A stretch of 64,000 nucleotides of DNA from assembly GCF_964355755.1 (NCBI RefSeq), contig NC_092671.1, forward strand, positions 3,483,001 to 3,547,000, in the 5' to 3' direction. The notes beneath the pieces are model-generated. The model ran no database searches. It saw only the letters and a program-made list of their open reading frames with translations, and was not told the DNA's origin. This document shows positions 1 to 64,000 of the stretch, in pieces. The DNA is from Antedon mediterranea. Its lineage: Eukaryota > Echinodermata > Crinoidea > Comatulida > Antedonidae. Both the position numbers and the translations under genes were made by a program. Numbering within the stretch: position 1 is the first letter of the stretch; every line of letters starts with the position of its first letter.

Positions 1-261
1 TAAGGCCTACCTAAGCTTTAATATCAGGGCTTATGTTGTTACACCGTACATGGAGGTATAACAAGGCCATGTACCTGGCTGCAGTCGCGTGCTCAATTTA
101 GTGTTTACCGACCGACCAATACCCGACCGACATAGTGAGCTTTAGAGTCGCGTTGCACGCGACTAAATGTAAATTTTTTTACCTCCATGCACCGTATAGA
201 ATAGGCCTATAGCTAAGTCAGACATGGCCTATGCCTAATAATAAATACATTTCTTTTTCAG
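1..261. other. Intron upstream of the first visible exon
   Basis: This stretch ends in a strong 3' splice site (a pyrimidine run, then CAG at 259-261), so it is read as the 3' part of an intron of the TSR membrane-protein gene. The ATG at 231 lies before the acceptor and is not followed by a signal peptide. A short TIR-type repeat occupies most of the stretch. Confidence 0.6.
44..199. repeat. MITE-like repeat, related to 19381-20173
   Basis: The edges are inverted copies: CCGTACATGGAGGTA on the left and TACCTCCATGCACCG on the right. The interior holds GTCGCGTGC, a GACCGACC run and GCACGCGAC. The same motifs in the opposite orientation (GTCGCGTGG, ACTATGTCGGTCGG, GCACGCGAC) bound the larger repeat at 19381-20173. 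Confidence 0.55.
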
Positions 262-3200: not shown

Positions 3201-6200
3201 TTACATCAGATGTTCTCAGCAGCAGCAGCAGCAGGTACTGATAATGTTCAAGAGAAAGAACTGCTGAATCGGGTGATAGACGTTATAGCACCACGTACCA
3301 CTGAATGGTACACAAATACCTCCATTAGCAAAAGAGTCCATAATGAACGAGCAACACCTTTACTAAATATGGAGATTACTAACCAGTGGCTTGATGATGC
3401 GATTACAGTTCTTTCGAACAAAGACAATTCATCGTATCGAGACCACATTTTAGAAAAATTACATCAGATGTTCTCAGCAGTAGCAGCAGGTACTGATAAT
3501 GTTCAAGAGAAAGAACTGCTGAATCGGGTGATAGACGTTATAGGACCACGTACCACTGAATGGTACACAAATACCTCCATTAGCAAAAGAGTCCATAATG
3601 AACGAGCAACACCTTTACTAAATATGGAGATTACTAACCAGTGGCTTGATGATGCGATTACAGTTCTTTCGAACAAAGACAATTCATCTTATCGAGACCA
3701 CATTTTAGAAAAATTACATCAGATGTTTTCAGCAGTAGCAGCAGGTACTGATAATGTTCAAGAGAAAGAACTGCTGAATCGGGTGATAGACGTTATAGGA
3801 CCACGTACCACTGAATGGTACCCAAATACCTCCATTAGCAAAAGAGTCCATAATGAACGAGCAACACCTTTACCAAATATGGAGATTACTAACCAGTGGC
3901 TTGATGATGCGATTACAGTTCTTTCGAACAAAGACAAGTCATCGTATCGAGACCACATTTTAGAACAATTACATCAGATGTTCTCAGAAGCAGCAGGAAG
4001 TACTGATAATGTTCAAGAGAAAGAACTGCTGAATCGAGTGATAGACGTTATTTTACCACGTTTCACCGAATGGTACCCAAATACCTCCATTAGCAAAAGA
4101 GTCAATAATGAACGAGCAACACCTTTACCAAATATGGAGATTACTAACCAGTGGCTTGATGATGCGATTACAGTTCTTTCGAACAAAGACAATTCATCGT
4201 ATCGAGACCACATTTTAGAAAAATTACATCAGATGTTTTCAGCAGTAGCAGCAGGTACTGATAATGTTCAAGAGAAAGAACTGCTTAATCGAGTGATAGA
4301 CGTTATTTTACCACGTTCCACCGAATGGTACCCAAATAGCTCTATTAGCATCGAACCTTATACTCAAGAGACACTTAAACAATTAGTTTCAAACAATAAG
4401 GTTGCAGTAACAAGGGCTAAAGAGAAAAAATCTCCAGGGCAACAATTACTGAACTATATTGAAGAAGCTCTTTTATCAACGGACAACAACAAATCTGAGA
4501 CATTTGACGTGCTTCTTAGACATATGAAGAATATGATTGAAAGAGCCATCAAAGTAAACCATACAGGTGGTATGGTTATGGATGTACAAAATCTTCTACT
4601 AGACACTTTATATGATGTTGATGGTTTACCCGAATACAGTACAGCTCAGATGCTAACACAACCAAACGTTGGTAAGCCTGATGAAAAGGATATGAATGGT
4701 GACAATGAACTAGTAACACCATTACTAAAGATGGCAATTACTAACCATTGGCTCGATGATGCGATTACCGTCCTTTCTAACAACGACATCTCAGCGTATA
4801 GAGACCACATTTTGGACCAATTACGTCAGATGTTCTCAGAAGAAACAGGTACTGATAATCTTCAAGAAAAAGAATTGCTGAATCGGGTGATAAACGTTAT
4901 TGCACCACGTACTACGGAACAATATCCATTTAGTACCAATAGCAAGGACCCTGATCTTGAACAGACACAACCACCATTGACAAGCAATATAATTGGAAAA
5001 ACACAAGACATACAAAAATGGGTGGATACCTTCATGGACCCTTTATCGAATAAAAATGTCCAGAATTCTAAAGTTGATGGTGAGACTTTGTCAAAGTTAA
5101 ACAATTTACTTCAAGAAACTCCTACAGATCAGTATGCATTATACCCTTTACAAAGAGTTACGGCATCATCAGGTGAATCATCGTCATCAGGTAAACAAGA
5201 AAATATTCATACTGTTGAACCAAATCGTATTGATGTAGAAGTCATCAAGCCAACAGAACTACTACTAGAGAGTTCAGGAACACTTAAGCAATCAAACGAA
5301 TTATGGGTTAACAATTTTGTAAATTCTATCCCAGAGAAAGGAAGAAATAAAGACACTGCACTTACTGGCGAAATTTTAGAAAAACTATCAAAATTGAATT
5401 ATTTACTGGAAAGTACAATTAATCCTGATATTAAACCGAACCCTCTTCACCATCGTGATATATCCTCCAAGGAAGTCACGAGTAAAAGTAGTATATCGGA
5501 ATTCACTAAATCTATGGTAACACACGGTTATAACAAGCCAACAGAATCACCAATGGAGAGTACATTAAGGTACGAAGAAAAATCATATGAGGAATGGGTT
5601 GATACCTTTGTCAGTGCTATTCCTGAGACTCAAGGAGACGCTATGCTTATAAATGAAACTATTTCAAAGTTAAACGATTTACTTGAAAGCACACACAATC
5701 CTGACAATATTCTTCGTCACGATACATCTATTGAAGAAGTCACAGAAGGCGTCAAAGGCAAAACTATCGTATCAACAAATGATCAGAACATGGTAACACA
5801 GCACATTGAAGGTTATATCAAGCCAGCAGATGTACCAATGGAAACCACAGAAAGAAGTGTAGAAGACTCAAGTGGTGAATGGGTTGATAAACTTTTCAAT
5901 GCTTTTCCCGAGACAGAAACTAATGTGAACTCTAATAATACTTTAGAAACTTTATCACAACTAAATGACTTATTTCAAAGCACAAGTAATCCTGCTAATC
6001 CACATACTTACAGTACATCCTTTACAAAAGTCAACATAAAAGCTACTAAACACTTGGTAACTCAACGCATAGATAATTATACCAAGCCAACAAAGTCACC
6101 AATAGAGACTACAGGAAGGCACGTAAACGAATCAAATCAGGAATTATGGGTTGATACTTTTGTCAATGCTATTCCTGAGAAAGGAAGTCAAGAAGTCGAT

Positions 6201-9200
6201 GTGCATAATAAAACATTAGCAAATCTGTCAAAATTAAATGGTTTTCTTCAAAGTAAATCTGTTAATACATTGAATCTCCCTTCTCTTCACCATGACACAA
6301 CCACTAAAAATGTCACCGAAAGTGTTGTCGACATACCACCAACTACAGAGTACATGCTGATTGAAGCGATAGAGCCACCAATTAAGAGTACAGGAATACC
6401 TGTAGAAGAATCAAATAATGACTGGGTTGAAAATCTTGTCAACTCCATTCCTGAGAAAGGATTTCAAGGAGGCGATATGCGTAATAATAAAACATTAGCA
6501 ACTCTGTCAAAATTAAATGGTCTTCTTCAAAGTGAACCTGTTAATACATTAAATCTCCCTCCTCTTCACCATGACACAGCCAATAAAAATGTCACAAATG
6601 GTGTTGTCGACAAAATGAATACACCACCAACCACAGAGTACATGCTGATTCAACCGATACAGCCACCGATGAAGAGTACAGAAATAGCTGTAGAAGAAAC
6701 AAATAATGACTGGGTTGAAAATATTGTCAACGCTATTCCTGAGAAAGGAAGTGAAGGAGGCGATGTGCGTAATAATAAAACATTAGCAACTCTTTCCAAA
6801 TTAAATGATCTTCTTCAAAGTGAATCTGTTAATACATTGAAACTCCCTCCTCTTGACCATGACACAGCCACTAAATATGTAACCGAAGGTGTTGTCGACA
6901 AAATGAATACACCATCAACTACAGAGAAAATGCTGATTGAACCAAAGGAGCCACCAATGAAGAGTTCAGGGATTCCTGCGGAAGAATCAAATAATGACTG
7001 GGTTGAAAATATTGTCAACGCTATTCCTGAGAAAGGAAGTACAGGAGACGATGTACTTACAAATAAAACGTTGACAACTCTATCACAATTAAACGAGTTC
7101 TTTCGGAACACACCTAATCCAGTTCCTCCCCTTCGGCATGATGCATCCGTTACAGAAGTCCCGAAGGTTGAGATTGCTGATAAAAGTACCATAGTGACAA
7201 TTACTGAGCCCATGGATGCAGTTGGGATGAAAGTGTATAAACCAGTTGAAGCAACGAATATCATTTTAAGTACAACCAACCAAATGACAAAAAAAATTCC
7301 TCACGATACAGACGTTCAAGTAGTTAAGGCTCCTGAAAGTAGTATTATAGGTCAACTGACAACTGCTGAGACCATGAAAGTAGTTGAATTGAAAAAAGTA
7401 TATAAGCCAACTGAAAGTACAACCAACCAAATAACAACAGTAAAGTATACTGATAATACGTTTCAACCTTTTACGCATCATGTTCCAGAAATCCAAGCAG
7501 CTGAAGTTACTGACAACTTTATTGTGCTGAAAGCTACTCAGCCTTCTACCGAGGTAGGGTTGAATAAAATGTACAAACCAAGTGAAGCGACTGCTCCCAT
7601 CTTAAGTAGGCCTACAGCCGTCAATATACCAATAGAATCTGATTTATTTCGTAACACTCATGCCAATAAACCTCCTTCAGAAACAGTTAGATTGGAAAAA
7701 GAACATCAACCAACTGAAGCAACCGATGCAATCGACCATATTGCGACAGGATATGTAGGGAAAACAAACCCAGTAGAATGGGTTGAGCCTCTCATTAAAC
7801 AAATGGAAAGTAATTTGAGATCTGAGAATACTAATGAATACTTTGAAACTCTCTCGAAGGTAAACGGTTTATTGCAAGTAACTGTACCGGATGGTAAAAT
7901 ATCTCAAGTTAAACCGGTTTTCAAAGAAACTTCGTCTTTCAAAAATGTGTCAATTGAGTACGTTGGCACAGTTTCAAATAAACTAAAAACGGTCGAGTCA
8001 ATCTCGAAAGAGAGTGTGGTGCCGTTGCCAAACAGTCAAGAAGAAGTTATACCAGAAGTATTAAGTAAACCAATAGCCAATCAACATACTAACACGCGCC
8101 TTTTGAAGAATGACACATTGATGAAAAATTTGGTACAGAATTTGACAAAAATTCGCCATAAAAAAGTACAAGTTTTTCATGAATCTGACAAATCTCGCAA
8201 AGTAGCTAACGATATCAATCCGCTGAGTGATCTACGTAATAATCTGCATTTGAGAGAAAAACAAGTTATAGATAACCTAAGAAATCTAGTTCAGCCTAAA
8301 AGCGAAGGCCTTTATGATCTATTAAAGCCGGGTAATACATTACCTACGACTGAAAGAATAAACAAGAATGTAGCTCGTACAGTACTTCCTAAGACGAATA
8401 GTGTCATTGAAACATTTGAAGATATATTTCAAACAAATTCAAAACAAGGCGAAGAAAAAAAAGGCAAAAATAATGATTTTATTGGAAGTGTTTTAAAACC
8501 GTTTGATGAGAAACCTGTACTAAATTCAAATGTAGACGATGTAGAAATAACAGAATACGAACATATATCCACCACGAAGGAGGCAAAGCCCGTTGATAAG
8601 GTTAACCCCGTTCGTGGTCCTCAGCTATCGTCAGAGACGCTCTACAGACAGCCATCTGGAGTTATTAATGCAGTACATATAGAAGATGTCAGAAGTCAAA
8701 CGAATCTTGAAGCAGTAAAGTCATTATATTCAGATGAAATGGTAACATCAAATTATGTAAAAATTACAGCAGTGGATGAGAAAGTTGTCACTGACGTTGT
8801 AGAAAACGTTGTGTTGGATGTCGTAAACGAAAAAGAAATACAACGAACCTCGGAATCAGATTCAGCAGAATTTGCTAAAACACTGCTGATGCCACCAGGA
8901 CTTGTACCATCTGTACAACAAACACTAGATAGAGTAGAACAAGGTTTAGATCTTAATTCTCAATTGAATCCACTTAGTAATGGAGGAAATTGGAGAAGCA
9001 GAATGTATTCAAGAAAAGGGAAAAAGAAGATACCATTGAGTTTATCACCTGTGGACATTTCTAAATTGGGTTCTGTTGAAGAGAAACGCATTTCGGAAAA
9101 TGGCGGACGTGTGGAGACGACTAGGCCTACTGTCACGACAACTAGGCCTACCACACCCAAGATAGTTTTATTGGAAGTGAATACTGACAGATCGTCTTAT

Positions 9201-9768
9201 GCAAGACAATCACCGCATAATGGAGAATACATTATCATTAATAACGAAGACAATGGCGTCAATTTGGAATCAGAAACCATTTCTGTGGCAAGAGACAATC
9301 CAGACTTAGTCCCGCAATCTGGTGTATCTGGAAAAGGTCCGGGAACTAGAATTAACGATTACAAATCTGGGTTTTACGATGGGTTCAGAATGGCTATCGA
9401 TTCAAACACTGAAATTAGACAATTGCAAGAACAACAGAGTATAAGGACACGCGAAGAAGAGCTAGTTTCGGCACTACAGGGACAACATTTCCAGAACAAA
9501 AAACCGTTTAACAACGTTGTCATAAAAAATACTATTGTTGGTGGTCTTCCTAAGCATAGAAATAATATTGAACAACAAATTGATGGCAATAATAAGGATA
9601 TAAGTTCCTCCATGACGTCACAGATATTAACGGAATGGGGGAGGTGGTCAGAATGTTCGGGATCTTGCGGAATTGGATACAGCAAGCGTCATCGATCGTG
9701 TCTTGTTTTGGATAGATGTTATGGGAAAACTATGGAAACCAAACGGTGCAGCCTACAGCCATGTCCAG
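262..9768 (+). CDS. TSR membrane protein, 9.5-kb exon
   Basis: The exon runs from the acceptor CAG at 259-261 to the donor CAG|GTACGT at 9769 and is open throughout. The donor is fixed by phase: ending at 9768 leaves one base of a codon, which joins the next exon and keeps the second TSR in frame. The alternative donor at 9773 would break the frame. The first TSR (about 9630-9768) ends in QPCP at the junction. Confidence 0.85.
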
Positions 9769-12700
9769 GTACGTAAGTTGGCAATGAATTCCGACACGTT
9801 TACGTTACACGCCTCTATACACGTTTACATGTCATCAACTAATCACTAATTGGAAGTATCACAGTATGTTGAGGTCTGCTCTAATATTTTATGTGTATTG
9901 TGTAGTTGTATGGGGCGACTGGGCATCATGGAGCGCATGCTCAGCAACGTGTGGTGTAGGTTTTGCAGACAGAAGGCGAACTTGTTTTCGCCGTAAAGGT
10001 GTAGCACAAGAGACATGCAATGGATACGATGTTGAAAATCGTGAATGTTATTTAACGGCATGCAAAAAACATAACAGTAAGTTCTCTTATGTTGTCAAAA
10101 CAGTTACAAAAATAGTACACATTTGTGCGCATGAGTAAATGTAATTGTATGCACGTCACCGATGAATATTCATCACAATAGAAACCAAAGCTCTGTCTAC
10201 ACTGTCTATATGTGCCAAAAAATGTGATGTACCCATGCGCGATGACATCGTATCACTATCATGTTTGGGCACATCACACTTTTGATAGTGTGGGCGGAGC
10301 TTAAAATACAAAATTACACAGATTTATAAAAATTTTCTTTTAGATTCATTGTCAACCCTAGAAGGATTTCTAATTGCAGCTCCGTTCATCGGAATGTCGA
10401 TGTTGGCTTTTGTATTCATTATAGCAAAATATTGCATAAAGAGAAGGTAAGTGTTTTGTCATCAGTTTCCTCAACAATATGGTTATTGTAACGGCTTAAC
10501 TGTAACTGAAAACACACCCGATTCTGCAGCTTGATTGATAGATCGTAACTGACTATTGAGAGTTATCTAGATACGAATATTGTGCCAAACATTGGCAAGT
10601 TGGTACTACATTCAAATGCATATTTTGTAGGCTCTAGGCTTACAATCGTTATGCCATCTTTAATTTCTTGTTTTCTTAAATATTGTTTTTTTATTTGAAT
10701 AACTTTTACAGAAACTCATTGAAAAATCGTCAGGTGGATTCGTCACCGAAAGAATATGACTATCGGAGTTCTCCTGTAAATTCTATAAATTCTTTCTCGA
10801 ATGACAGTCACGTAAAAGTCAAACGCAGCCAATCTGTTACGAAGGCAAAACGAAGTAATTCAGCTGTAACACGAGGCGAACGTTCGTTTGTAAACGTAAG
10901 CGCGCCTACGGGTTACTATAAGAAGAACGTCCGTAACAATGAAAAAATTCAACGTGAAACAATGCGTTATACGCATTACGATGGAGATAGACGTGATAAT
11001 AAAGAAAAGAGGAAGGTAAGCTCGGAATTCCAGAGGATTAAAACAACGAGGCCACGCCCTACGAGTAATATATACGAAAACTATTGTGGAGATTACCAAG
11101 ATAGTCATTTGCCAGAACGCGAAAACTTTAAAATCCCTGGCAGTATTCCGCTCTCTGATACCCGTCTCAGACAACCAGTACACACGTCACATATGAAACA
11201 GACATCAGTAAATGGAGGTCGTGAATCAGCAGGAAATCGTGTGAATACAGATCATCAACTGTCTCGTCATTCATCGAAAAAATCAGTAAAGATGAGACAT
11301 CATCCATCGCAGACTTCTTCTGAATGTTTTCAATTTGATAAACAAATGCATTTACCAAAATCTGTCAAAATTAAGGAAGAGCATACACTCTCTAGTTTAC
11401 AGGACATGCGGACAGTCAAAGGCAGTATGTCCAAGGAATCTCTTAGAAATTCAGATTACTACTTTTTGCCAATAAAAAACGAAACAAATCAAGCACAACA
11501 TAAACTGACACGTAATACTAGCTCTTCGTTAAAAACTTCAAATGTTAGCCATTTGAAATCTGAATCAACACTTAACTCTGGAAAACACAGACAACAACCT
11601 GTCCGCCAAAACCTTCCTCGACCAAAATTGTCATTGTACCGAGATGAACCTCGTCTATTCAACGATAGAACGGAGTTACCAATGGCTGACACACTAACAA
11701 GGGCGTTATCGGTAGCTTTAGCTACACAGGAGATACGCACCGATGTAACACCACAACTTTCCGAACAAGAAACAAGAATGTTGAAAGCAAAGACGAATGG
11801 ATCAATACAGAGTAGAAATGGAAATAGAAAAGGACGCATTCGATCGCACACATCTACCAACAAATATGACAATAGTGCGAGGTCGCATAATACTTTTCGG
11901 AAATCGTACTCAGTTTTATCAGTGAACACACGAGATATAAAACCGACACGTTTTGATGACGTAACCAATTTGCAATCAGTATCCAATAATGAGAGATCTA
12001 ATGAATTAACTTTGGAAGTTGACAAGCATGATCAACAAAATGGAATAAAACATGATACATCAAACTCGCGAGTACCTACAATAAACTCTCGAGTACCTTC
12101 TTCAAACTCGCGAGTACCTACAACAAACTCGCAAGTATCTACACCTAACTCGGGAGTAGCAACATCAAACTTACGTGTGCCGACATCAAAGTCGCAAGTA
12201 CCTACACCAAACCTGCGAGTACCTACATCAAACTCGCGGGTACCTACATCAAACTCGTCAGTAGGAGGAGAACAACAGACGGCATATAGACAAGAACCCA
12301 ACAGGTTGTCAGATGAAAGGTATAAGCCATTCCAACGAGAAGATGCCGATAATGACACCAGTCCGTCGAACGCCCACAATAAAAGCTTACAAGGTTCCCC
12401 CTCAAATGAACACGATTTGACGGGGATTATTTCATCAAGTCATATACCAAAGACATCGACACCAATTTCTGCAAGGAGAACATTTAATTCCGAGAAGAGA
12501 CATTTAAGTTCTAAACAAGATCCAAGAAATGTTAAAGAGGATTCGAAGAAAAGAGTTCAATTAGATGGTGAAATAAAAACAAACGATACATATCCTCCAG
12601 ATGTAAACCATACAGATTTCGTAAACTTCTGTCAATGGAAACATTCTTTGTCAAATAATGGGACTCAAAATGGCGGTTCTTTGTCAAATAATGGGACTCA

Positions 12701-14291: not shown

Positions 14292-14481
14292 CTAATATCG
14301 TGGGAATGGTGGGGCATCGATGACGGAGCAGACACAGCAGGTTTGGATAGCGACAAACTGTACTTGTAGATCTGGCGCTTGGTTGCCTTTGTCATCATGT
14401 GTGCATCCGGCTACCACAAGGGCTCGTTTCCAGGTGAATTTTCCAATACAAACACCACGTGCACCATCGCATTCTTCAGTA
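14292..14481 (-). CDS. Protein A, exon 5 (C-terminal cystine-knot half)
   Basis: Minus-strand acceptor TACTTACAG before 14481. The single base completes Asp after VEC, then TEECDGARGVC, KRALVVAGC and AIQTCCVC to the TAG at 14294-14292. The exon starts with no Met and was found by phase and by matching the paralogue. Confidence 0.88.
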
Positions 14482-17400
14482 CTGTAAGTATAGAGCGCTT
14501 AATTTAGTAAATCGTTGTCTATATAAGTTGCCGGTGAATATATTAAATCAAAATGATTACCACTTGGACGCAAATGCAAGGACGTACGTAAGCGCGTCCG
14601 CCGCAAGTAATTTGGCCAATCACAATGGATTTGATCATCCAAACTGATGATTGTGATCACGTCATCATTGCGTTGCGTGGGAACCAAACTTAAATGTGCA
14701 ACCTCTATAGATATCATGTCATGCCTTAACACTGTGATCAAGTCAAAAAGTAACATTTATTATTTCTATTGTAAATTCATTCATCTGGTCACAACTTCAT
14801 ACCAATCTTCACTATATACAGCACTCAAAATCGTCACTGAAGCTCTGTCTACACTATCAAACAAACATGTGATGTGCCCATATATGGACATGATGATGTC
14901 ATATCACTACCATATTTGTGCATATCACTTCCATAATTGGGCAAATCACATTTTTTTGGCACATGAAGTTTGATAATGTGGACAGGGCTTAAAACTTGGT
15001 TCTCACTTGTACGCAACACAAGAGTCGTTCGCGCAACGTAATTGGTTAGTGATTGGTTAATACTTTTGCGCTTACGTCATTACGTTGCGTCCTAATAGGA
15101 GAACTGAGGTTTTTAATGAAAACGAATACTTACTCGCATTCTACTGAGAAGAATTCCTGTTTGATAACCGGTGCGTAGCGACGTTTGTCGTCACCAACTT
15201 GTAGAATCTTTACGTAATATCCTTCAGTGTTGAGAGCCCATTCTTGACGACCCAGTGTTAGAGTTGAAGGGCAAATCGGGGAAAATTTGACCTTGATAGG
15301 TAGACCTCTGTTGTAGTGATAATCGTATGGAGCTGGGTAACCAGCATTTCCTCCGGCACCTCCAGCATTTCCACCATCCCCGCCATTTCCACCGTTTCCG
15401 TAACCTGCGGCGTCACCACCGTTGCCACCATTTCCTCCTCCGCCAGCACCATCTCCACCAGTTCCACCATCACCACCGTCACCTTCTACATACCCACCGC
15501 CACCACCATTACCGCCGTTTCCGCCGACACCAGCTACCGCGCCTCCGGTACCACCATCACCACCGTTACCACCTTCTCCATAGCCACCTGCATCTCCACC
15601 AGTTCCACCATTTCCACCACCGCCGAATCCACCACCATTACCACCAGTTCCTCCGTTACCACCGTCGCCCACGACTACACCGGCATCTCCTCCATTACCT
15701 CCATTTCCACCTTGACCACCTAAATCATCGACAACATAGTACCCGTACTTACGACTATATAAAAAAAAATTGGTAAGTTAAAAAAAAAAAACACATACTA
15801 CAATATTTGACCAGTAGGCCTATCATTTTGGTAATACAGCATCTCATGTGTGTCATATGTGGTGAATGTATCTTGTAAAGTTAGATTAAGGGTTATAGTA
15901 TATTATATTAGGAGACAAAGTTGTAGACAACTTTACTTAAGCGCTGCTTAATTATCTTGACTTAAGCAAAGAAAAAAAGAGATAAATGCAAGCCCTGATC
16001 ACTTTTTCAATCTCCCCATTCCCTCCCACCAACAGAAAATGTAGGATGAAAATTCCCTTTATCCAAATCGACATTTATCGTATTTATAGTCTTCGCAGAC
16101 AGCGTCGTACGGCGTGGTAAATTAAACATGTTCAAAGTTCTCGCGACGACCACCTGAAAACTACGCGCGACCGACGCTAACTGAGAAAGCAGTTGTACGA
16201 CGCTGTCTGAGTGGGCCTTTAGTTATCGTTCTTATAGGCCTATGGCCATCTAGTCTAGGTTGAAGACGGTGCTTTTCCACTTAATTGTATTGGTATGAAA
16301 TGATAAATATTTTTGCGTTTAATACGTATAATACTTGATCTTGACCATTAAAAGACAATACTAGTATATAATATATATTCTTTTTGTTATAAGCTTTTGA
16401 AATATGAAATAAAAATGTTCGTGCCAAAATGATGATTCGCCGGTTCGTGTGACGAGTGACGGTATGTACATGATAATAATATGCAAATTTAAAAACTTAC
16501 CCACTAAAATGAGGATTGAATGTTAACTGAGGAAGTGCTGGATTTAATAACTGCTGATATTCATGAAGTACTCTACCTATCTGACCAGGATTCCAACTGT
16601 CTGCTCTGAAAAATAGATAACATATATATGCGTTTTGAGGAGAAGTAACACTAGACTGCCCGCCGCGTCATTGTAGTAACGCCGGCGGATTGCCAGTCGG
16701 CATCGTTTATGGTTAGAACTAGGGCGGTATCTGATCGCCTTCGAACCTCTAACTTTCGTTCTTGATTAATGAAAACTGAAGCTTATAACTATTAAATACA
16801 GTGGTGGTAGAATGACAGTGATGCTTGTGGACTTTTCTCTGTTCTTTATAAAATGATTCATGTATAAGCTAGCAGCTTGAATTTCGAATTTTTGTTTTCT
16901 CTCTTTTGTGACTTGAACCGCCACTTTTATTCATTCATTCAACATGATAAACTGATGATTAATAAAATTAATCAGTAATATTTGTTTTTAGTTTTCACAC
17001 CATTGTTATTCAATAATTATAATCCTCCTTTTTCGTAATTTGTTAAGTTTGTCCGCGCAAGCTCAGAAATATAGGCCTATAAACATATTATGCGCAGAAT
17101 GACCGTTAGACCCAATAGATTCACAGTCGCATTTATATACACAGTGTATACAGTATACAACAGGGAAGAGTGAAATAAATGTCACTCTTCCCTGGTATAT
17201 ATCATAATAGAGTTGCACTGATGAAGGGCTAGTGTTGTCCGAAATCTCTGCTAATTTTTCTGGCTGTTTTACTTACTACATTTTTTCCATTATTTTGATT
17301 ACGCTTTTTGCCTATTTTATTTGGCATCTCCATTGAAATCCACCCACAGCATTTTTTCAGTAATTTGCCTTTGCATTAATGATATAGTAATAGTAATTTA

Positions 17401-17723
17401 TTGATGTTATAAAATAGAAAATTGTACTAAAATAATTTAACTTACCCACACTGTGGATCGTACGAGCTACGTGTCAGGCGCACTGATCTGGCGCCTACGT
17501 ACGCTATGACGCACATAAAAATAATTCGTCCCAACTGTTTTGAAAAAATTGTAAGACAATTGAAAAACAAAAACACTTAGTGGTATACAATAATACTGTT
17601 GCTTTTGCCATCACACTCTCTTTAGCTTGTACCGTATATTATTCTTTCATTCATTTCTTTATTTCGGATAGTACATCCATATACAAATCATACAAAAAAA
17701 CAATCTATATATTTACTTACCAT
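14292..17723 (-). CDS. Secreted Gly-rich Spaetzle/neurotrophin-type cystine-knot protein A
   Basis: Five minus-strand exons (17723-17721, 17534-17446, 16605-16501, 15754-15134, 14481-14292) total 1,008 bases, 335 residues, with intron phases 0,2,2,2. Order: signal peptide with core IIFMCVIAYVGA; a conserved SSYDPQCG segment (about 26-31); a prodomain with HEYQQLLNPALPQL; a Gly-Gly-X region (about 78-204); and a C-terminal knot. Knot cysteines fall at 227, 272, 277, 284, 299, 321, 322 and 324. Motifs WALNTEGYYVKIL, FTWKRALVVAGC and VQFVAIQTCCVC match the strands and CCxC end of Spaetzle and, more loosely, the VxAL and CVC of neurotrophins. It is predicted to be a secreted, possibly proteolytically activated ligand. 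It is paralogous to the plus-strand gene at 21310. The fold assignment is firm; whether it binds Toll-type or other receptors is unknown. Confidence 0.85.
14840..14991. mobile_element. MITE-like element, AGCTCTGTCTACAC family
   Basis: Left AAGCTCTGTCTACACTATCA, right TGATAATGTGGACAGGGCTT, inverted, with the family core ATGATGTCATATCACTACCA. It lies in intron 4 of the minus-strand ligand gene. Confidence 0.85.
15134..15754 (-). CDS. Protein A, exon 4 (Gly-rich region and first knot half)
   Basis: Acceptor TATATAG before 15754, donor GCGA|GTAAGT after 15134. The apparent stop just after the donor is intronic. It encodes RKYGYYVVDDL, then the Gly-Gly-X region, then a Tyr/Pro linker and SPICPS through FFSVEC. 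Confidence 0.9.
16098..16207. repeat. Short palindromic element in intron 3
   Basis: Perfect 13-bp inverted ends, GACAGCGTCGTAC and GTACGACGCTGTC, enclose a GC-richer interior with several CGCG steps. Confidence 0.6.
16501..16605 (-). CDS. Protein A, exon 3 (prodomain)
   Basis: Acceptor TTTTTCAG before 16605, donor GG|GTAAGT after 16501, phase 2 on both sides. It encodes ADSWNPGQIGRVL, then HEYQQLLNPALPQL. The LLNPxLP core is shared with the paralogue's exon at 22458. Confidence 0.85.
17161..17194. repeat. Hairpin repeat, CAGGGAAGAGT family, copy 1
   Basis: CAGGGAAGAGTGA and its inverted partner TCACTCTTCCCTG enclose a short AT loop. A second copy, with different loop-proximal bases, is at 25885-25920. 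Confidence 0.7.
17446..17534 (-). CDS. Protein A, exon 2 (signal peptide)
   Basis: Acceptor AAAACAG before 17534 and donor GG|GTAAGT after 17446. Phase 0 at the start joins directly to the lone ATG of exon 1. The hydrophobic stretch IIFMCVIAYVGA is followed by a basic segment and YDPQCG. Confidence 0.8.
17721..17723 (-). CDS. Protein A, exon 1 (start codon at exon end)
   Basis: On the minus strand the sequence is ACG ATG|GTAAGTAAA, so the initiator ATG is the last codon of the first exon. The paralogue has exactly the same arrangement (ATG|GTAAGT at 21310), which supports both starts. Confidence 0.8.
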
Positions 17724-17801
17724 CGTTCTGTTTAGTACTATACTAGTCTATAATATTTGGTTGGCTGTAGCTAAGTTACCACTTATGGTTTACAAGATCT
17801 T

Positions 17802-17809
17802 CTTAAATA
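17802..17809 (-). promoter_or_regulatory. TATA-like element of gene A
   Basis: Minus strand TATTTAAG, about 80 bases before the ATG, the same spacing as the TATAAA of the paralogue. Slightly upstream, the minus strand has GTGACGTAAC (CRE-like) and GGGCGTGGC. Confidence 0.5.
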
Positions 17810-18387
17810 CCAACTAACATACTGTAGCCACGCCCATTTGTTACGTCACTAAAATTGAAGGTTTCCGACTTCTTGGATACCATATGGCTGGGACAATTCA
17901 CAAAAATACTTAAATGGTTTTTAAGTAGTGAATTGTTGTTTGGTTATCGTATTATCATTAGCAAAATTGAATAAGAATGCGGTGGATTTTAATATAGTTC
18001 AAGATTTTAGCACTACAAATTACACGAACAATGTTGAGATGTGTACACTTATGATTAAGCCTCATCCGGGGTATTAGTGTTTACAATGTGTCATCGAAAG
18101 AGGGGAATATTGGAGAAAAAAATGTATCCGCATGTTATTTCATTGATTCTATAAATCTTCGAATTATCAATGATGATAATTTATTGTCATACATATTTGA
18201 AAATAATGATAGTCTACTAAAATAATGTCTATAATTTAGATATAATATCGATATTATTAACTTCATTCTCTCTATATTTTGGGTTATTTTTTAGTTTTTA
18301 TTTTATTATTTTAATTATTCAATAAAAATGCATTTGTAATTCGTATAGATACATTATAAACAACATTATATATAGACACTTTCGTGA

Positions 18388-18535
18388 CCACCGCCAAATT
18401 CTGCAGCTGCCACTAGATAGAGTCTAACTGACTATTGGAAGTCATCTAGAAAAGAGTCTGCATTAAATACTTTTAAGACATGTTATCTCTGACAATAGTT
18501 AGGCTTCATTGACAGCTGCAGACTCGGGTGTCGTG
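18388..18535. repeat. Inverted-repeat element with CTGCAGCT ends
   Basis: Left AAATTCTGCAGCTGCCA and right GACAGCTGCAGACTCGGGTG are imperfect inverted copies. The interior TCTAACTGACTATTGGAAG pairs with CAATAGTTAG. A half copy sits in a TSR-gene intron at about 10510-10580. Confidence 0.5.
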
Positions 18536-19380
18536 CATGACCCTATAAACGAGTGTTCCCTGAATAGTGGTGTTCCCAGAATTAGGATTGACCCCGTATA
18601 TAATGTTCGTTTCACTGGAAATGGCAAATATGGAATATAAGGAATAGGAAAGGTTATTTTATTTATCTTTTCAAAACGTTATCTTAGATCTAAATCGTTT
18701 TGTTGTAGACTATGAATTACCTCCTGATGGACCCGGTAGATTAATTAAGGGGACACTTTTCTGTAAAACGAATGAGGGGGGAAATATGTTTTTATACACA
18801 TGGCCAACCTTTATTCACACAATAGTTTGTTTTGTGGTTTTCCCTGTTTCATTTCTTCTCAGTTTTACACTGTTACAAATTTACTTAGATATTACTTGTC
18901 CTTTAAAAACATGAAAAATTATCATAATTTGAATAGGTTATTTTGTAGTTTTAATAAATTTAAGCCCTTCCGTAAAAAAAACTTTAAAAAATAATAATGT
19001 TTTCTCATATAAAATGACAAAATAGTCAAAATCAACCAAAAAACGGGCCAAAAACCTTTTGGTTGGCAGCCAATTTGACTATTTTTTGCTTTAAATTACA
19101 TTTTTTCAGGTAAATACATTTTTCCGATTCAATTTGTGTGGTTAACCATTATGTGACATTAAAATGGCATATTCAACAAAAATAAAATGTAAACAAATAT
19201 TTTTTCAGGCGACAATACATCTTTAAATAAATATGAATTCACTTGGCCAAAATTGGATAAACATTTTTTAAGCAACAATAGTCTAATTGTCAGACAATGT
19301 GGTTTTTTTGGTTAAGTTTAACCGTTTATTTTGTATGTCTATAGTGAAATCATATGGTGAAATCATTGTTTTTGTTCGTT

Positions 19381-20173
19381 TTTAGTCGCGTGGAAGCGAC
19401 TCTGTAGTTCACTATGTCGGTCGGTTGGTCGGTCTGTCTGTCTGTCGGTCTGTCTGTCGGTCTGTCGGTCTGTCGGTCCGGTATCACTATGCGTTTTATC
19501 GCTTTCTGACCTTATCTTGATATCAGTTTAATCTAGCTAGGTCAATTTGCCAGGAATCAATGTGGTTATGTTTTCACGGTGCGCAATAAAAAATTACGCG
19601 GTCTACGCACGATTTAACGAAATCACGTTTGTAATCATATCTTCACAACCATGAATCACAATTAAATAAAATTTGGTACTCATAAATTTCAGGGCATAAA
19701 TCATCATATGATATGGCAATACAATTACGTGCGTAGCGCATGTAACGCATGCGTACGCGCGCTTAAAATTTTCAAAATTTATTTTCGATGAAATAAGAGT
19801 ACGTTTCAGGCAATTTTAAGCATTTACAAAATTGCCATGAGTGCGCATATTTTTGCGCGCGCACTGCGCGTTAAATGTTGTTGCGCACTCTTTTTGCCCG
19901 ATTTCTGTTTTCTTGACTTACTTTTCAACTCGAAATTACGTTATAGGAGCACGTCAAAAGTGACAGGCTACGCACGTGTAAATTAAAAAAATATAAATGT
20001 TTTTAAACATTTCAACATTTTTAAACATGTTCAGTAATTTCGGTCAGTATAGTTCACTATGTCGGTCGGTCGGTCGGTCGGTCTGTCTGTCGGTCTGTCT
20101 GTCGGTCTGTCTGTCGGTCTGTCGGTCTGTCTGTCTGTCGGTCCGGTATCACTATGCATTGTAGCACGCGACT
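19381..20173. mobile_element. Non-autonomous element with GTCGGTCT minisatellites
   Basis: It begins TTTAGTCGCGTGGAAGCGAC and ends GCACGCGACTTA. Two inner blocks, at 19413-19490 and 20052-20155, each start TTCACTATGTCGGTCGG, continue as (GGTCTGTC)n and end GGTCCGGTATCACTATGC. A short related copy is at 44-199. Confidence 0.65.
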
Positions 20174-20483
20174 TAATGGCTGTTGGCCTTGTTTTATATA
20201 AGAAGTGATCGTGAATAAACTTAGATAACTTTAGATAATTAGATGTTCTAATGTACAGCACTTTGGTATTTTTTTTTAGGAAAGCGCTTTATAAATCTAT
20301 CTAGTATAGTATAGTATAAAAACGGCCCATTTAAAGTGTTTAATAATAGTCGTTAAATTAAATTAATTTTCACTTTTTTCCATATTTTCGGGGACAATAC
20401 AGATATAATGATTTCTTTTCGTTGAATAGTATAAAATCTAGTCATTTAAATGGACAATTCTATTTTATGGAAATCGTTCTTTT

Positions 20484-20645
20484 CCTTCGGCATCCGTTTC
20501 TCTGGAATGCGTTGCCTATTGAAATCCGTCAGGCAACTTCCACCAGTGTCTTCAAATCTCTCCTCAAAACCCACCTTTTGAATTTTTAATTTTCTAAATG
20601 TTTCTGTCTATATGTAAAGCGCATTGAGGCTTTCAGCATAATATT
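20484..20645 (+). mobile_element. LINE 3' remnant (CR1/L2-like reverse transcriptase C-terminus)
   Basis: In one frame it reads PFLWNALPIEIRQATSTS, then FKSLLKTHLL, the typical C-terminal end of CR1/L2-type reverse transcriptase proteins. It is followed by a GTAAAGCGCATTGAGGC-type tail and an ATT run, as expected for a truncated LINE 3' end. Confidence 0.75.
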
Positions 20646-20700
20646 ATTATTATTATTATTATATTATTATTATTATATAATTATTATTATTATTAGTGTT

Positions 20701-20751
<51 letters not shown>

Positions 20752-20752
20752 T
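20640..20752. repeat. ATT trinucleotide microsatellite
   Basis: Runs of (ATT)n interrupted by short AT variants. It directly follows the LINE remnant. A smaller ATT run lies at 21365-21401. Confidence 0.95.
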
Positions 20753-21228
20753 TGTATAAACGTAAATTTAAAAACTAATAATTAGGCCTATTACCTTCCA
20801 TATTTCTTCTAATTTTACATTAATTACATACATATTATTTAATTTTACGCTTTTGCGGTTTCCTGTTGATCTTCCGTCGTAAAAATCCACGCCATATGGT
20901 ATTTAGAAACACAATCAAATAACAAGTTTAAAAGGCGTTTGAATGTGGTAATGAACTTAAACGTACGAGTATCATAATTAATAATGAAGTACGCGTGAAT
21001 GAGATGCATTATATTAAATGACGTATTATGATTCCTCTCATTAACTGTCTCGTCCCTACTTCAGATGTGTTCCCCTTGTAACTTAAAGTACACTTGCTTA
21101 TCTAGGCCTACTACCAGCTGTAGCTAAGTACTTTTAACTACCTTCGTATTTGTAACTTTTCCGGGTGGTTTTTATCGTGGATGCCCCGCCTAGCATTTTT
21201 TTAGCTCCGCCCCTCGAGACGGTTTGTG

Positions 21229-21234
21229 TATAAA
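21229..21234 (+). promoter_or_regulatory. TATA box of gene B
   Basis: TATAAA about 80 bases before the ATG at 21310, which would put transcription start near 21260. GC-rich motifs CCCCGCC and CTCCGCCCC lie just upstream (21184-21215). Confidence 0.6.
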
Positions 21235-21309
21235 GAGAAGTAGTCGAGATTTCTGAATCGAAAAAACAGTTTTGACTTCATCGGCCGAAATACATGACCT
21301 GCAGTTAAA

Positions 21310-21312
21310 ATG
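21310..21312 (+). CDS. Protein B, exon 1 (start codon at exon end)
   Basis: ATG|GTAAGT: the initiator codon is the last triplet of exon 1, mirroring protein A. The 5' untranslated part would be about 50 bases. Confidence 0.82.
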
Positions 21313-21369
21313 GTAAGTTTAATTTTAAACGAGGTCTTCTAAATCTGTAATAATTTGAAATAAATATTA

Positions 21370-21402
<33 letters not shown>

Positions 21403-24291
21403 GAGAAACGTTGTTTATTCGCTCTAAATTTGTACTTTTTACGGGCTAGTGATTTGAAGGTCGTGTTTTCGAGTTGTAGTACCCGAACTTATATGCTTTT
21501 TTTGTTAATATATTATACTGTTTATAGATTAAAATTGTTGGTATTCTCTGTTTAATTGCGATCGTTTCGGCATCATATGATCCGGTTGACGAAAGGCTTT
21601 GTGGGTAAGTGTTTACAAAGTAACATAACATGTAAAGGTGACATCTTCGGGACCCAAAGGTGTCCTCATAGGGATAACGTCTTATATAAGTCAATGATGC
21701 TCTCCAGGTGGTATACCATCCTAAGATGGGTAGTAGTAATTAGTACAATTTTCTTTAAAAAAAAATTAATTTATATGTAAATGTTACTTTCTATGGACCA
21801 GAGATTCCGATATAAAAGATTGAATTGAAAATGTAATTGAATTTCGTCTGATTAGGGCTTCTTCACATTCGTTTTAAATAAATCTATAAAAATAAACAAC
21901 ATTGTTGACTTCTCTTACCATGGAGGTATATGTATATATATATATATATTAATTTTATATTTCCCCGTTCTTACCAAATAAAGAATTAATTATACCCCGA
22001 TAACCCGATATAAATGTCGTTACCGACCTACCGACCTACCTTTTATTGTGTTGAAAAATACCTTGACTTGTGTGAAAATACAAGTTTACAAGCTCAAGTA
22101 TTAAACGCTATATGTGCCAAAATATTTATCTTAATACTAATATTGAATCAAAACTCCGTCTGGAACCCAGACTAGCTCCGGCCCTTCAATTACAGTTTAA
22201 ATCCTTCCCAGTACAATGCCTCTTGCAATTTGTATAATGAGCAATACTGGGTATGGTCTACTAGCGTTCCTGCTCCCAACTCGTCATCCATTCATAGAAG
22301 CCTTGATGAAGAAAGCCTACCTGGTGGTAACCATAGAACGGTCCCGAGATAAAAACTATACTTCGGCTTTAGTCGATAGAAGATTGAAAAAATTGTTAGA
22401 GATAGAGTATACGATGTTTGATTATTTATATAATTAGTTGATTTCATTGTTTTATAGACTTACCAAAGATGCAAAGAGATTGTCAGAATTGCTGCAAACA
22501 TACGATTATCTTCTAAATCCTCAGTTGCCAAGAGTTGACCCAGATGTCGTATTGTAAGTTTAAGTAATCTAAACTTTAATTTCTAATTAAAATATTAAAT
22601 ATATTGATTTTCATATGGATTTTAAAAAAAATATTTAATTAAATATTATATTCAGTATCAATATAACGTATAATACGTAATTGAAGGAAGTCATAGAATA
22701 TCTTCCATTCTTGCTTGATGACATTTTGTCACATACATACATAGAGGTCCCCGCTTTTATCAGTGGCACGGCGGATTAAGGATATTTAAATAGAGAGGGA
22801 GTGAGTGGAGGAGGTGCCTTGTAAATAGTAATTAAAATGTTGAAAATAGCCTATTACCTCACCCTATTTAGTACCGTAAATCATATAATGTTCTCTTTTT
22901 CTCGACCTGCTTAGTTATGGCGTGCCATTTATAAACTATGGCCTCCCAAACTTCGATGGTGGCAACGGTGGAAATGGTGGTACCGGCGGTGTAGATGGAG
23001 ACGGTGGTAATGGAGGTAATGGTGGTAATGCTATTAACAATGGTCAAGGTGGTAGTGGAGGAAACGGTGGCAACGGAGGTGGAGCTTATGGTGACGGCAT
23101 TGGTGATGGTGGTGAGGGCGGTAATGGTGGCGAAGGTGGTGTTCTTGGGGGCCAGGGTGGTTCTGGTGGATCTGGTGGTGACGGAGGTGAAAATGGCGGT
23201 GAAGGGGGTCAAGGTGGAACCGGTGGTAACGGTGGTCATCTTGGTGGTAATGGAGGTTCTGGAGGTAGCGGTGGACAAGGAGGATTCTTTGGTGGTAATG
23301 GTGGCGATGGCGGTGCTGGTGGTAACGGTGGTACCGGTTATCCGCTGGTACCTCCTTTTATAGCAGCCAATCCTTCTAGCTATATACCTGGTTTACTGCC
23401 CAGAAATGTTGATCTTTGCCCGGTAATCAGACGTAATATCCAGCGTAAGACAGCCTACAACACAGGTGGTCAATTGGTCTATCTTGTACAAGCTAAACTT
23501 GGAAAAATCAAAATACAACAATATTTCGATGAGTCTCGTTGTTCGTAAGTAGGCCTACGGTTTTATTTTTACTTTTGTGTATAAATGATATCGAAATACA
23601 GTAGTACCCCTAGTAAATGGACACATTTGTGACCTAAATGTCTCTTAAAATATAGTCCTTAGTCTAAATAGGGGTTAGCCTATTTTTACGTTTCCTTTTA
23701 CTGGTTTCATGAGAAATTGTTCCCTTACTTGTACTGTATGTAAAAAACATAAAGCCTCGTTATATTTAGTTTAATATTTATATAAAATAAAATAAGTACA
23801 GTATATAGTCCGATCCCCAGGGACACCATAAGCACCCACCAAAGTGTCCCTAATAAAAGTTGGTAGTACGGTAGTGTAAAACAATATATTGTACTCAGTG
23901 TGTGTGTCCCCTGGATAGGGATGTGCCCTGAACACGGCTGGGATGTCCCGAACGCGGAGTAGCACTGTAACAATATATTGTACTCATTCGTTTCATGGGA
24001 ATGTGTCCCCTGGATAGGGATGTGCCCTGAACAGGGCTGGGATGTCCCGAATGCGGAGTTTAGCACTGTAACAATATATTTATATATATGTAGCTTAAAT
24101 AATTTAAGCTTGTTTTTTTTTTCTTCAGTAAACAGAGGTGTGCACTTCTTGGCGCGCGAGCTGGAAACTGTATTCAAAAGTTCGAATGGAGAAAAGCTTT
24201 AGTTGTTGCGGGATGTAATCACGGTGAACCTGACGTCAAAGTACAATACGTTGCTATCCCATCCTGTTGCGCCTGTGAATTTCTTCATTAA
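21310..24291 (+). CDS. Secreted Gly-rich Spaetzle/neurotrophin-type cystine-knot protein B
   Basis: Exons 21310-21312, 21528-21604, 22458-22553, 22915-23544 and 24129-24291 total 969 bases, 322 residues, phases 0,2,2,2. Order: clear signal peptide MIKIVGILCLIAIVSA, then SYDP and LCG, a prodomain with YDYLLNPQLPRV, a Gly-Gly-X region (about 74-200), a linker and the knot. Knot cysteines fall at 227, 268, 273, 283, 298, 315, 316 and 318. The end AIPSCCACEFLH parallels the IPSCCKC of Drosophila Spaetzle. KIQQYFDESRC and WRKALVV also recall the KQYFFETKC and VKAL strands of NGF. A possible activation site is the single Arg in GLLPRNVDLC just before the first knot cysteine. It is the paralogue of protein A and lies divergent to it. 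The receptor and biological role are not known. Confidence 0.88.
21528..21604 (+). CDS. Protein B, exon 2 (signal peptide)
   Basis: Acceptor TTTATAG before 21528, donor GG|GTAAGT at 21605. It encodes IKIVGILCLIAIVSASYDP, then VDERLC and two bases of a Gly codon. Confidence 0.88.
22458..22553 (+). CDS. Protein B, exon 3 (prodomain)
   Basis: Acceptor TTTATAG before 22458, donor ATT|GTAAGT at 22554. It encodes LTKDAKRLSELLQ, then TYDYLLNPQLPRVDPDVV. Confidence 0.88.
22915..23544 (+). CDS. Protein B, exon 4 (Gly-rich region and first knot half)
   Basis: Acceptor CTGCTTAG before 22915, donor TC|GTAAGT at 23545. It encodes YGVPFINYGLPNFD, the Gly-Gly-X region, then YPLVPPFIAAN, DLCPVIRRN and FDESRC. 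The in-frame TAA just past the donor is intronic. Confidence 0.9.
23800..24066. repeat. Tandem duplication in intron 4 of gene B
   Basis: Two copies of a block containing CCCCTGGATAGGGATGTGCC, TGGGATGTCCCGAA and GCACTGTAACAATATATTG. It looks derived from the dispersed GGGACAC element family of this locus. Confidence 0.75.
24129..24291 (+). CDS. Protein B, exon 5 (C-terminal cystine-knot half)
   Basis: Acceptor TTCTTCAG before 24129. The first base completes a Ser codon after SRC, then KQRCALLGARAGNC, WRKALVVAGC and AIPSCCACEFLH to the TAA at 24289. Confidence 0.9.
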
Positions 24292-63740: not shown

Positions 63741-64000
63741 GTAAGATGCGCAATAATTAGGCCAGCAGAAACACATAGATATGATGTTTGCATTTGTTAA
63801 AACTTCTGTATGCGATTTCGACTTTTAATCGCATTTGCAAATGATGTTACATCAACTCATAAGTGCATGGCAGCATACATTAAGTACTAGACGCTTTTAA
63901 TATATAGCGCTTACTGCTCAATACTTCTGAGCACTTTACATTATTACCACCCTGGTTATTTGAATACATTCGTATGGACAGCTCTCATAATGTTGCATCA

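What the first reader, a model, noticed from the sequence alone, without database searches (positions are those of the whole stretch)
14292..24291. Paired Spaetzle/neurotrophin-type cystine-knot ligands in a probable deuterostome
Both genes end in the same eight-cysteine module, with spacings close to C-x40-44-C-x4-C-x6-9-C-x14-C-x16-21-CCxC. The CCxC ending, the short loop between cysteines 2 and 3, and the ALNT-G-YV strand fit Spaetzle. KQ-F-E-C, the V/K-R/K-AL strand and CVC recall neurotrophins. Spaetzle ligands are established for arthropod Toll signalling; I do not know of a described echinoderm-type family with this form. It could be a ligand for expanded Toll-like receptors or a relic linking Spaetzle and neurotrophins.
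Basis: partly seen in the sequence, partly recalled or inferred. Interest (0 to 1): 0.92.

Follow-up and report, generated by a model that had tools for sequence, protein, structure and literature searches.

The report
Paired Spätzle/neurotrophin-type ligand genes
Two neighbouring animal genes encode secreted proteins that end in a growth-factor fold midway between insect Toll ligands and vertebrate nerve growth factors, and they belong to an expanded family in which that fold is joined to glycine-rich, collagen-like or, probably, sugar-binding front ends.

Summary
Two divergent five-exon genes (A, minus, 335 aa; B, plus, 322 aa) share exon phases, GT-AG sites, a GGX-repeat domain and a C-terminal eight-cysteine module spaced as stated. 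B passes Pfam Spaetzle (38.6 bits, cut-off 27); A does not (17.4) but is B's paralogue. A profile of seven family domains finds 22 PDB sequences, all neurotrophins or Spaetzle. The genome holds ten reconstructed members (A and B included) and five partial loci, besides one canonical single-exon neurotrophin. At published sites the family is mixed, not plain Spätzle: 133 is I/V in 10 of 10, Pro136 in 8 of 10, Trp130 in 4 of 10 (not A, B). It resembles the ambulacrarian NT2 group described in 2009 (PMC2772990), so the kind was not unknown. Striking are the exchanged front ends: GGX, collagen and, by consistent splice phases, C-type lectin plus collagen-like stretch. Two mcc (Toll-type) TLRs and a p75NTR transmembrane match are present. 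Receptor, dimerisation and function are inferred; the whole knot was not modelled.

The parts
17721..17723 (-). Gene A exon 1 candidate (initiator ATG only)
   Evidence: Only ATG|GT[AG]AG in 17530-21309 on the minus strand; same ATG-only exon 1 as gene B. Candidate, no transcript.
17446..17534 (-). Gene A exon 2: signal-peptide region
   Evidence: AG/GT sites; signal peptide judged by eye
16501..16605 (-). Gene A exon 3: short linker (..LLNPALP..)
   Evidence: AG/GT sites, open frame
15134..15754 (-). Gene A exon 4: GGX-repeat domain and first half of cystine knot
   Evidence: GGX runs
15349..15723 (-). Gene A GGX-repeat domain: 8 runs of 3-4 GGX triplets and one of 2
   Evidence: AlphaFold2 pLDDT under 50
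15134..15273 (-). Gene A knot, part 1 (Cys I and II)
   Evidence: pLDDT under 50
14292..14481 (-). Gene A exon 5: knot part 2 (Cys III to CCxC), stop codon
   Evidence: exon-wise genome match
21310..21312 (+). Gene B exon 1 (initiator ATG only)
   Evidence: ATG|gtaagt
21528..21604 (+). Gene B exon 2: signal-peptide region
   Evidence: signal peptide judged by eye
22458..22553 (+). Gene B exon 3: short linker (..LLNPQLP..)
22915..23544 (+). Gene B exon 4: GGX-repeat domain and first half of cystine knot
   Evidence: Pfam Spaetzle 34.8 bits for the whole protein
22955..23332 (+). Gene B GGX-repeat domain: 8 runs of 3-5 GGX triplets
   Evidence: AlphaFold2 pLDDT under 50 there
23417..23544 (+). 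Gene B knot, part 1 (Cys I and II)
   Evidence: helix and three strands, 34 residues at pLDDT 70-90
24129..24291 (+). Gene B exon 5: knot part 2 (Cys III to CCxC), stop codon

Best explanation
Genes A and B encode secreted precursors of cystine-knot ligands of the neurotrophin/Spätzle superfamily: signal peptide, short linker, a GGX-repeat pro-domain, and a C-terminal knot split by a phase-2 intron after Cys II. They belong to an expansion, in this genome, of NT2-like genes in which the knot is kept and the N-terminal part differs: GGX repeats (A, B, D), none seen (E, F, G), a short glycine stretch (H), collagen repeats (I, the least certain member), C-type lectin plus collagen-like stretch (C). 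Most likely working (inferred): the precursor is secreted; it dimerises covalently through the cysteine before Cys V and/or the extra conserved cysteine between IV and V; the repetitive N-terminal domain holds or clusters it in matrix or body fluid; a trypsin-like protease cuts upstream of the knot (B reads LPR|NVDLC; neither A nor B has a dibasic site there); the knot dimer then activates a receptor, most plausibly one of the two mcc Toll-type receptors, otherwise a Trk/p75-type receptor. Shown: gene structure in the DNA, homology, most knot cysteines in register, family, presence of candidate receptors. Inferred: dimerisation, cleavage, tethering, receptor.
For: Gene models with matching phases. 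Pfam Spaetzle over the cut-off of 27 bits in 6 of 10 reconstructed domains: B 38.6, E 40.9, F 43.0, G 46.6, C 27.5, H 27.6. Profile of seven domains against the PDB: 22 distinct sequences at E up to 10, 18 neurotrophins (7e-8 to 2e-6; one is labelled ovulation-inducing factor) and 4 Spaetzle (2e-5 to 6e-4). Family in own genome. Phase-2 intron just after Cys II in 9 of 10 (K lacks it). Extra Cys between IV and V in 9 of 10 (not K). C-type lectin exon (Lectin_C 75.6 bits) joined in frame to the knot exons through phase-1 introns. Collagen frame (87.7 bits) spliced to a knot-like domain in I. mcc-type TLRs L028 and L029. p75NTR transmembrane match 44.1 bits. Sites against PMC2772990.
Against: No transcripts, no tested receptor, no protein data. 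Below the Spaetzle cut-off are A (17.4), K (19.0) and, with no match at all, D and the corrected I. I rests on intron, cysteines and weak similarity (to H: 24.3 bits). A, B, C, D, H and I lack Trp130, which PMC2772990 gives for all neurotrophins but one; this speaks against a plain NT2 label. [quoted passage not shown] GGX and collagen front ends would also suit a structural protein. AlphaFold2 gave no confident GGX fold; for A with B as alignment the half-knot too stayed under pLDDT 50; Foldseek with the exon-4 model of B found nothing at E under 0.001, and none of the 50 matches shown is a neurotrophin or Spaetzle.
Confidence: 0.58

Rival explanations
1. True Spätzle orthologues kept in a deuterostome: Toll ligands that predate the protostome/deuterostome split.
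For: The Pfam Spaetzle score exceeds the NGF score in 7 of 10 domains (A, B, C, E, F, G, H); CCxC in 6 of 10 and Pro136 in 8 of 10; no Trp130 in 6 of 10; mcc Toll-type receptors present.
Against: K scores NGF higher, D and corrected I match neither. Site 133 is I/V in 10 of 10 and Pro13 is seen in 1 of 10, though Aedes Spz1C too has V at 133. A single-sequence search with G finds 18 neurotrophins and no Spätzle in the PDB, besides two antibody chains at E above 0.6. The two insect Spz stand apart on a very long branch.
Confidence: 0.2
2. Structural or gel-forming secreted proteins (matrix, mucus, adhesive or clot) in which the knot serves covalent dimerisation.
For: GGX repeats, collagen repeats and a lectin domain as front ends; no dibasic site before the knot of A or B.
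Against: The Gln before Cys II (by my mapping Gln44 of PMC2772990) is invariant in the seven members of A1; E, F, G show no repeats; the Coagulin model matches one member only, at 11.9 bits, cut-off 25. Even horseshoe crab coagulin is reported to act on a Toll (PMC6043800, passage), so the two roles need not exclude each other.
Confidence: 0.25
3. Derived neurotrophin paralogues that act through Trk/p75NTR and not through Toll. (This overlaps with the fallback receptor of the best explanation; the odds do not add up to one.)
For: The family profile scores neurotrophins above Spaetzle in the PDB; p75NTR transmembrane match; I/V at 133 in 10 of 10; G gives NT3/NGF at 7e-5.
Against: A canonical single-frame neurotrophin is already there (89.5 bits); A, B, C, D, H, I lack Trp130; Pro136 as in Spz. 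Trk was not searched for.
Confidence: 0.25

Closest known systems
Ambulacrarian NT2 group: sea urchin Sp-NT2, acorn worm NTa and NTb (PMC2772990, abstract, sections 15-16 and passages read)
   Same: Multi-exon precursor; extra Cys beside Cys V (6 of 10); Pro at 136 (8 of 10); Asn at 18 (8 of 10, read off the alignment); coexists with a single-exon canonical neurotrophin.
   Different: Ten reconstructed genes; front ends with GGX, collagen or C-type lectin; extra Cys between IV and V; Trp130 missing in 6 of 10, A and B among them. Sp-NT2 itself was not available to align.
Spätzle (arthropod Toll ligand; Pfam PF16077)
   Same: Six of ten domains pass the Pfam cut-off; CCxC in 6 of 10; pro-region plus C-terminal knot.
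   Different: Site 133 I/V in 10 of 10, no Pro13 in 9 of 10, Trp130 in 4 of 10; GGX pro-domain.
Neurotrophins (NGF, BDNF, NT3; PF00243)
   Same: Knot cysteines, conserved Gln, WxxIxV before the last cysteines in E, F, G; best PDB hits of the family profile.
   Different: Only F (27.9) and G (34.5) pass the NGF cut-off; extra cysteines; domain split by an intron; no dibasic site before the knot of A or B.
Spz7 of crustaceans (PMC2772990, passage)
   Same: Extra Cys between IV and V; gene expansion.
   Different: No GGX, collagen or lectin module is mentioned in the passages read; no sequences compared.
GGX polyglycine-II domains (PE_PGRS, snow flea antifreeze; PMC10216338, passages)
   Same: Runs of 3-5 GGX triplets separated by short turns, the helix length stated for PE_PGRS33.
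   Different: Here in an animal ligand precursor; no confident model.

Membership tests
Spaetzle (Pfam PF16077) | Gene B: score over curated cut-off (27 bits) | tested here: met
   38.6 bits domain, 34.8 whole protein; over the family 6 of 10: B, C, E, F, G, H
Spaetzle (Pfam PF16077) | Gene A: score over curated cut-off (27 bits) | tested here: not met
   17.4 bits domain, 13.6 whole protein
Spätzle sensu PMC2772990 | Pro at site 13 | tested here: not met
   1 of 10 (H) on the alignment, read by eye; not A or B
Spätzle sensu PMC2772990 | Aromatic residue at site 133 | tested here: not met
   I or V in 10 of 10; Aedes Spz1C also has V there in the same table
Spätzle | Binds and activates a Toll receptor after cleavage | not testable with these tools
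   Candidate receptors L028, L029 present
Neurotrophin (PF00243) | Score over curated cut-off (27 bits) | tested here: not met
   A 13.0, B 16.2; F and G of the family pass
Neurotrophin sensu PMC2772990 | Trp at site 130 | tested here: not met
   A and B have Val; E, F, G, K have Trp
Ambulacrarian NT2 group | Multi-exon gene, extra Cys beside Cys V, Pro136, Asn18 | tested here: inconclusive
   B meets these, A lacks Pro136 (Gln); both lack Trp130. Sp-NT2 sequence not available for alignment
Coagulogen (PF02035) | Score over cut-off (25 bits) | tested here: not met
   Only E matched, 11.9 bits
Neurotrophin/Spätzle cystine-knot superfamily | Knot cysteines in register with solved structures | tested here: met
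   Printed alignments: NT3, Cys I, II, IV, V, VI in register (III shifted by the gap); BDNF, Cys II to VI (I lies outside the match). No model of the whole knot
mcc (Toll-type) TLR, for L028 and L029 | LRR-TIR protein with two cysteine clusters in the ectodomain | tested here: met
   Two clusters each by cysteine positions; the internal one of L028 lacks CxC; at E up to 1 Pfam gave no LRRCT for L028 and one (LRRCT_2, E 0.095) for L029

The most novel reading that the evidence does not exclude
The genome carries ligands of the Toll/neurotrophin type whose own front end recognises or scaffolds the target: a C-type lectin and collagen-like stretch fused to a Spätzle/neurotrophin knot (gene C) and GGX bundles (A, B, D), so that sugar recognition, clustering and receptor activation could sit in one polypeptide instead of a separate recognition and protease cascade.
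Probability: 0.2. Interest if true: 0.88.

Novelty: new variant of a known kind. Interest (0 to 1): 0.62.

Why it matters
[quoted passage not shown] A family that is Spätzle-like by profile, neurotrophin-like at some key sites, and coexists with a canonical neurotrophin, a p75NTR match and two Toll-type receptors in one genome makes the question testable: do Toll receptors outside protostomes have protein ligands, and did neurotrophins and Toll ligands split before bilaterians diverged? The exchanged front ends would also be an unusual way of building such a ligand.

Tried and rejected
Polyglycine-II fold of the GGX region: run lengths fit, but AlphaFold2 on exon 4 of B alone and of A with B as alignment gave no confident structure; left as a hypothesis. 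Foldseek with the exon-4 model of B: nothing at E under 0.001. COX1 to fix the phylum: no match. Pfam Spaetzle searched straight against the genome: no match; I take this to be because the domain is split between exons. Coagulogen: rejected on score. Trees: the nine-member clade A-I is not rejected (p-AU 0.43) and not shown; with K added p-AU is 0.23. A link of Spz to IL-17 (PMC8226699, passages) was not pursued.

An error of mine: domain I carried two residues from the intron; corrected. The corrected I has no Pfam match (before, 14.6 bits to Spaetzle), its Cys II-III spacing is 3, not 5, and the tree was rebuilt. The C-terminal sites are not touched.

Left out before counting: five partial loci (C6:2186315, broken frames; C7:20705149, 19.2 bits, unconfirmed; C2:3401127; C2:17746502-17747390; C4:2831962). 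Of 38 TIR matches I fetched seven loci with long open frames; five were scanned and are LRR-TIR proteins, two of these mcc-type; L030 and L031 were not scanned and show no LRR by eye.

Papers opened: PMC2772990 (abstract, sections 15 and 16, passages); passages only of PMC8609888, PMC3788107, PMC8226699, PMC10216338, PMC6043800, PMC9427763, PMC8296651, PMC2586362, PMC11959729, PMC6018497 (the last two gave nothing used here).
Full report
WHAT IS THERE. The window is G000:C2:3483001-3547000 of a 354-Mb genome in 18 contigs. Two genes point away from each other, with 3.6 kb between their start codons. Both models have five exons, an ATG-only first exon (a candidate in A), GT-AG introns and the same phases. 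Each encodes a signal-like start, a short linker, a GGX-repeat domain (glycine 53-54% of the stretches taken) and a C-terminal eight-cysteine module. A and B are paralogues (39% over the knot, E 5e-17; exon match E 3e-9).

WHAT KIND OF DOMAIN. Pfam gives Spaetzle for B at 38.6 bits (domain) or 34.8 (whole protein), cut-off 27, and NGF at 16.2 or 12.9; for A, Spaetzle 17.4/13.6 and NGF 13.0/9.9. Single-sequence searches of the PDB gave only weak hits: for A one venom NGF at E 0.71; for B four neurotrophin sequences at 0.11-0.28 and a ribosomal protein at 1.2. The profile of seven family domains gave 22 distinct sequences at E up to 10, 18 neurotrophins and then 4 Spaetzle. In the printed alignments Cys I, II, IV, V and VI are in register with NT3 (Cys III is shifted by the gap) and Cys II to VI with BDNF (Cys I lies outside the match). 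The fold assignment is by sequence; the whole knot was not modelled. The half in exon 4 of B came out as a helix and three strands with 34 residues at pLDDT 70-90; the same half of A stayed under 50.

THE FAMILY. Protein searches of the own genome and reading of the loci give ten reconstructed domains: A and B; C (C2:602 kb) and D (C2:611 kb); E, F, G in tandem on C4 (32.44-32.46 Mb); H (C6:3.72 Mb); I (C4:2.83 Mb); K (C2:17.74 Mb). Nine of ten have a phase-2 intron just after Cys II; K has the domain in one open frame. Five further loci are partial. I is the weakest member: no Pfam match after correction. A canonical neurotrophin (NGF 89.5 bits in one open frame of 250 aa) is separate.

FRONT ENDS. 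A, B and D have GGX repeats; A has eight runs of three to four triplets and one of two, B eight runs of three to five, the helix length reported for polyglycine-II domains (PMC10216338, passages). AlphaFold2 gave no confident structure. I has a collagen frame of 841 aa (Collagen 87.7 bits) spliced to a knot-like domain. C has an exon with a C-type lectin domain (75.6 bits) flanked by phase-1 introns; exons 4 to 7 translate as one frame through lectin, a short collagen-like stretch and knot. E, F and G show no repeat domain in the exons seen. Whether C is one transcript is not shown.

SPÄTZLE OR NEUROTROPHIN? PMC2772990 (abstract, sections 15 and 16, and passages) names three separating sites and describes a second ambulacrarian neurotrophin group (Sp-NT2, acorn worm NTa, NTb). 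On the alignment and table ten own domains give: site 133 I/V 10 of 10 (neurotrophin-like; but Aedes Spz1C also has V); Trp130 4 of 10 (E, F, G, K; not A, B, C, D, H, I); Pro136 8 of 10 (not A, K); extra Cys before Cys V 6 of 10 (A, B, E, F, G, K); Asn18 8 of 10 (not G, K); Pro13 1 of 10 (H). The set resembles the description of NT2 more than that of Spz, but the loss of Trp130 in six members, A and B among them, does not fit a plain neurotrophin. PMC2586362 (passages) notes that DNT1 and Spz are closer to acorn worm NT than to other neurotrophins. So the kind is known. I do not claim that the exchanged front ends are unreported: of the ten literature searches (open-access papers only) none was aimed at them, and I saw no mention in the passages read. 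The trees set NT (99/98) and the two Spz (100/99) apart and leave the family unresolved between them; one clade of A-I is not rejected (p-AU 0.43).

RECEPTORS. 38 TIR matches. Of seven loci fetched, five were scanned and are LRR-TIR proteins; two (L028, L029; C9, 10 kb apart) have a second cysteine cluster inside the ectodomain, the mcc type of most Drosophila Tolls. PMC8609888 (passages) reports mcc TLRs also in sea urchin and Ciona, so their presence here is expected. A p75NTR transmembrane match scores 44.1 bits, cut-off 25.6. Trk was not searched.

HOW IT MAY WORK. PMC9427763 (passage) gives Cys-94 as the central intermolecular bond shared by mosquito and fly Spz; that this is the Cys just before Cys V, and that the same holds here, is my mapping. 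C, D, H and I lack a cysteine at that exact place but have the extra Cys between IV and V found in 9 of 10, which could serve instead. B has a single Arg before the knot, as a trypsin-like site would need; this is a reading of the sequence, not a test.

ORGANISM. A single-frame canonical neurotrophin with a basic site, a p75NTR match and both TLR types fit an invertebrate deuterostome, but I made no direct test; COX1 was not found.

VERDICT. A well-formed gene pair of the neurotrophin/Spätzle superfamily; a new variant of a known kind; receptor and function open.

Noticed in passing
L014 (G000:C2:598500-608400), oriented 3781-5808 on the minus strand: C-type lectin exon joined in frame through phase-1 introns to collagen-like and cystine-knot exons (gene C).
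   Followed up: partly
L023 (G000:C4:2823000-2828000), 991-4138: Collagen-repeat frame of 841 aa spliced to a small knot-like domain (gene I).
   Followed up: partly
L020, L032, L033 (C2:17.74 Mb, C2:3.40 Mb, C2:17.75 Mb): Further neurotrophin-like exons ending in WxxIxV...CxC; L032 lies about 82 kb from the window.
   Followed up: partly
L022 (G000:C6:2185000-2189500): H-like copy that matches in two frames with stops: probably broken.
   Followed up: no
L028, L029 (G000:C9:7134000-7146000): Two mcc Toll-type receptors 10 kb apart in opposite orientation; many of the TIR matches lie on C3:5.55-5.66 Mb.
   Followed up: partly
window 213-10135: Open frame of 3187 aa ending in a thrombospondin type 1 repeat, next to a further such exon.
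   Followed up: no
window 62969-63797: Two exons matching glycosyltransferase family 18 (MGAT5-type, name recalled).
   Followed up: no
L016 607-1635: DUF7869 open frame (transposon-like by eye) lying, by my model, in the intron of gene E.
   Followed up: no
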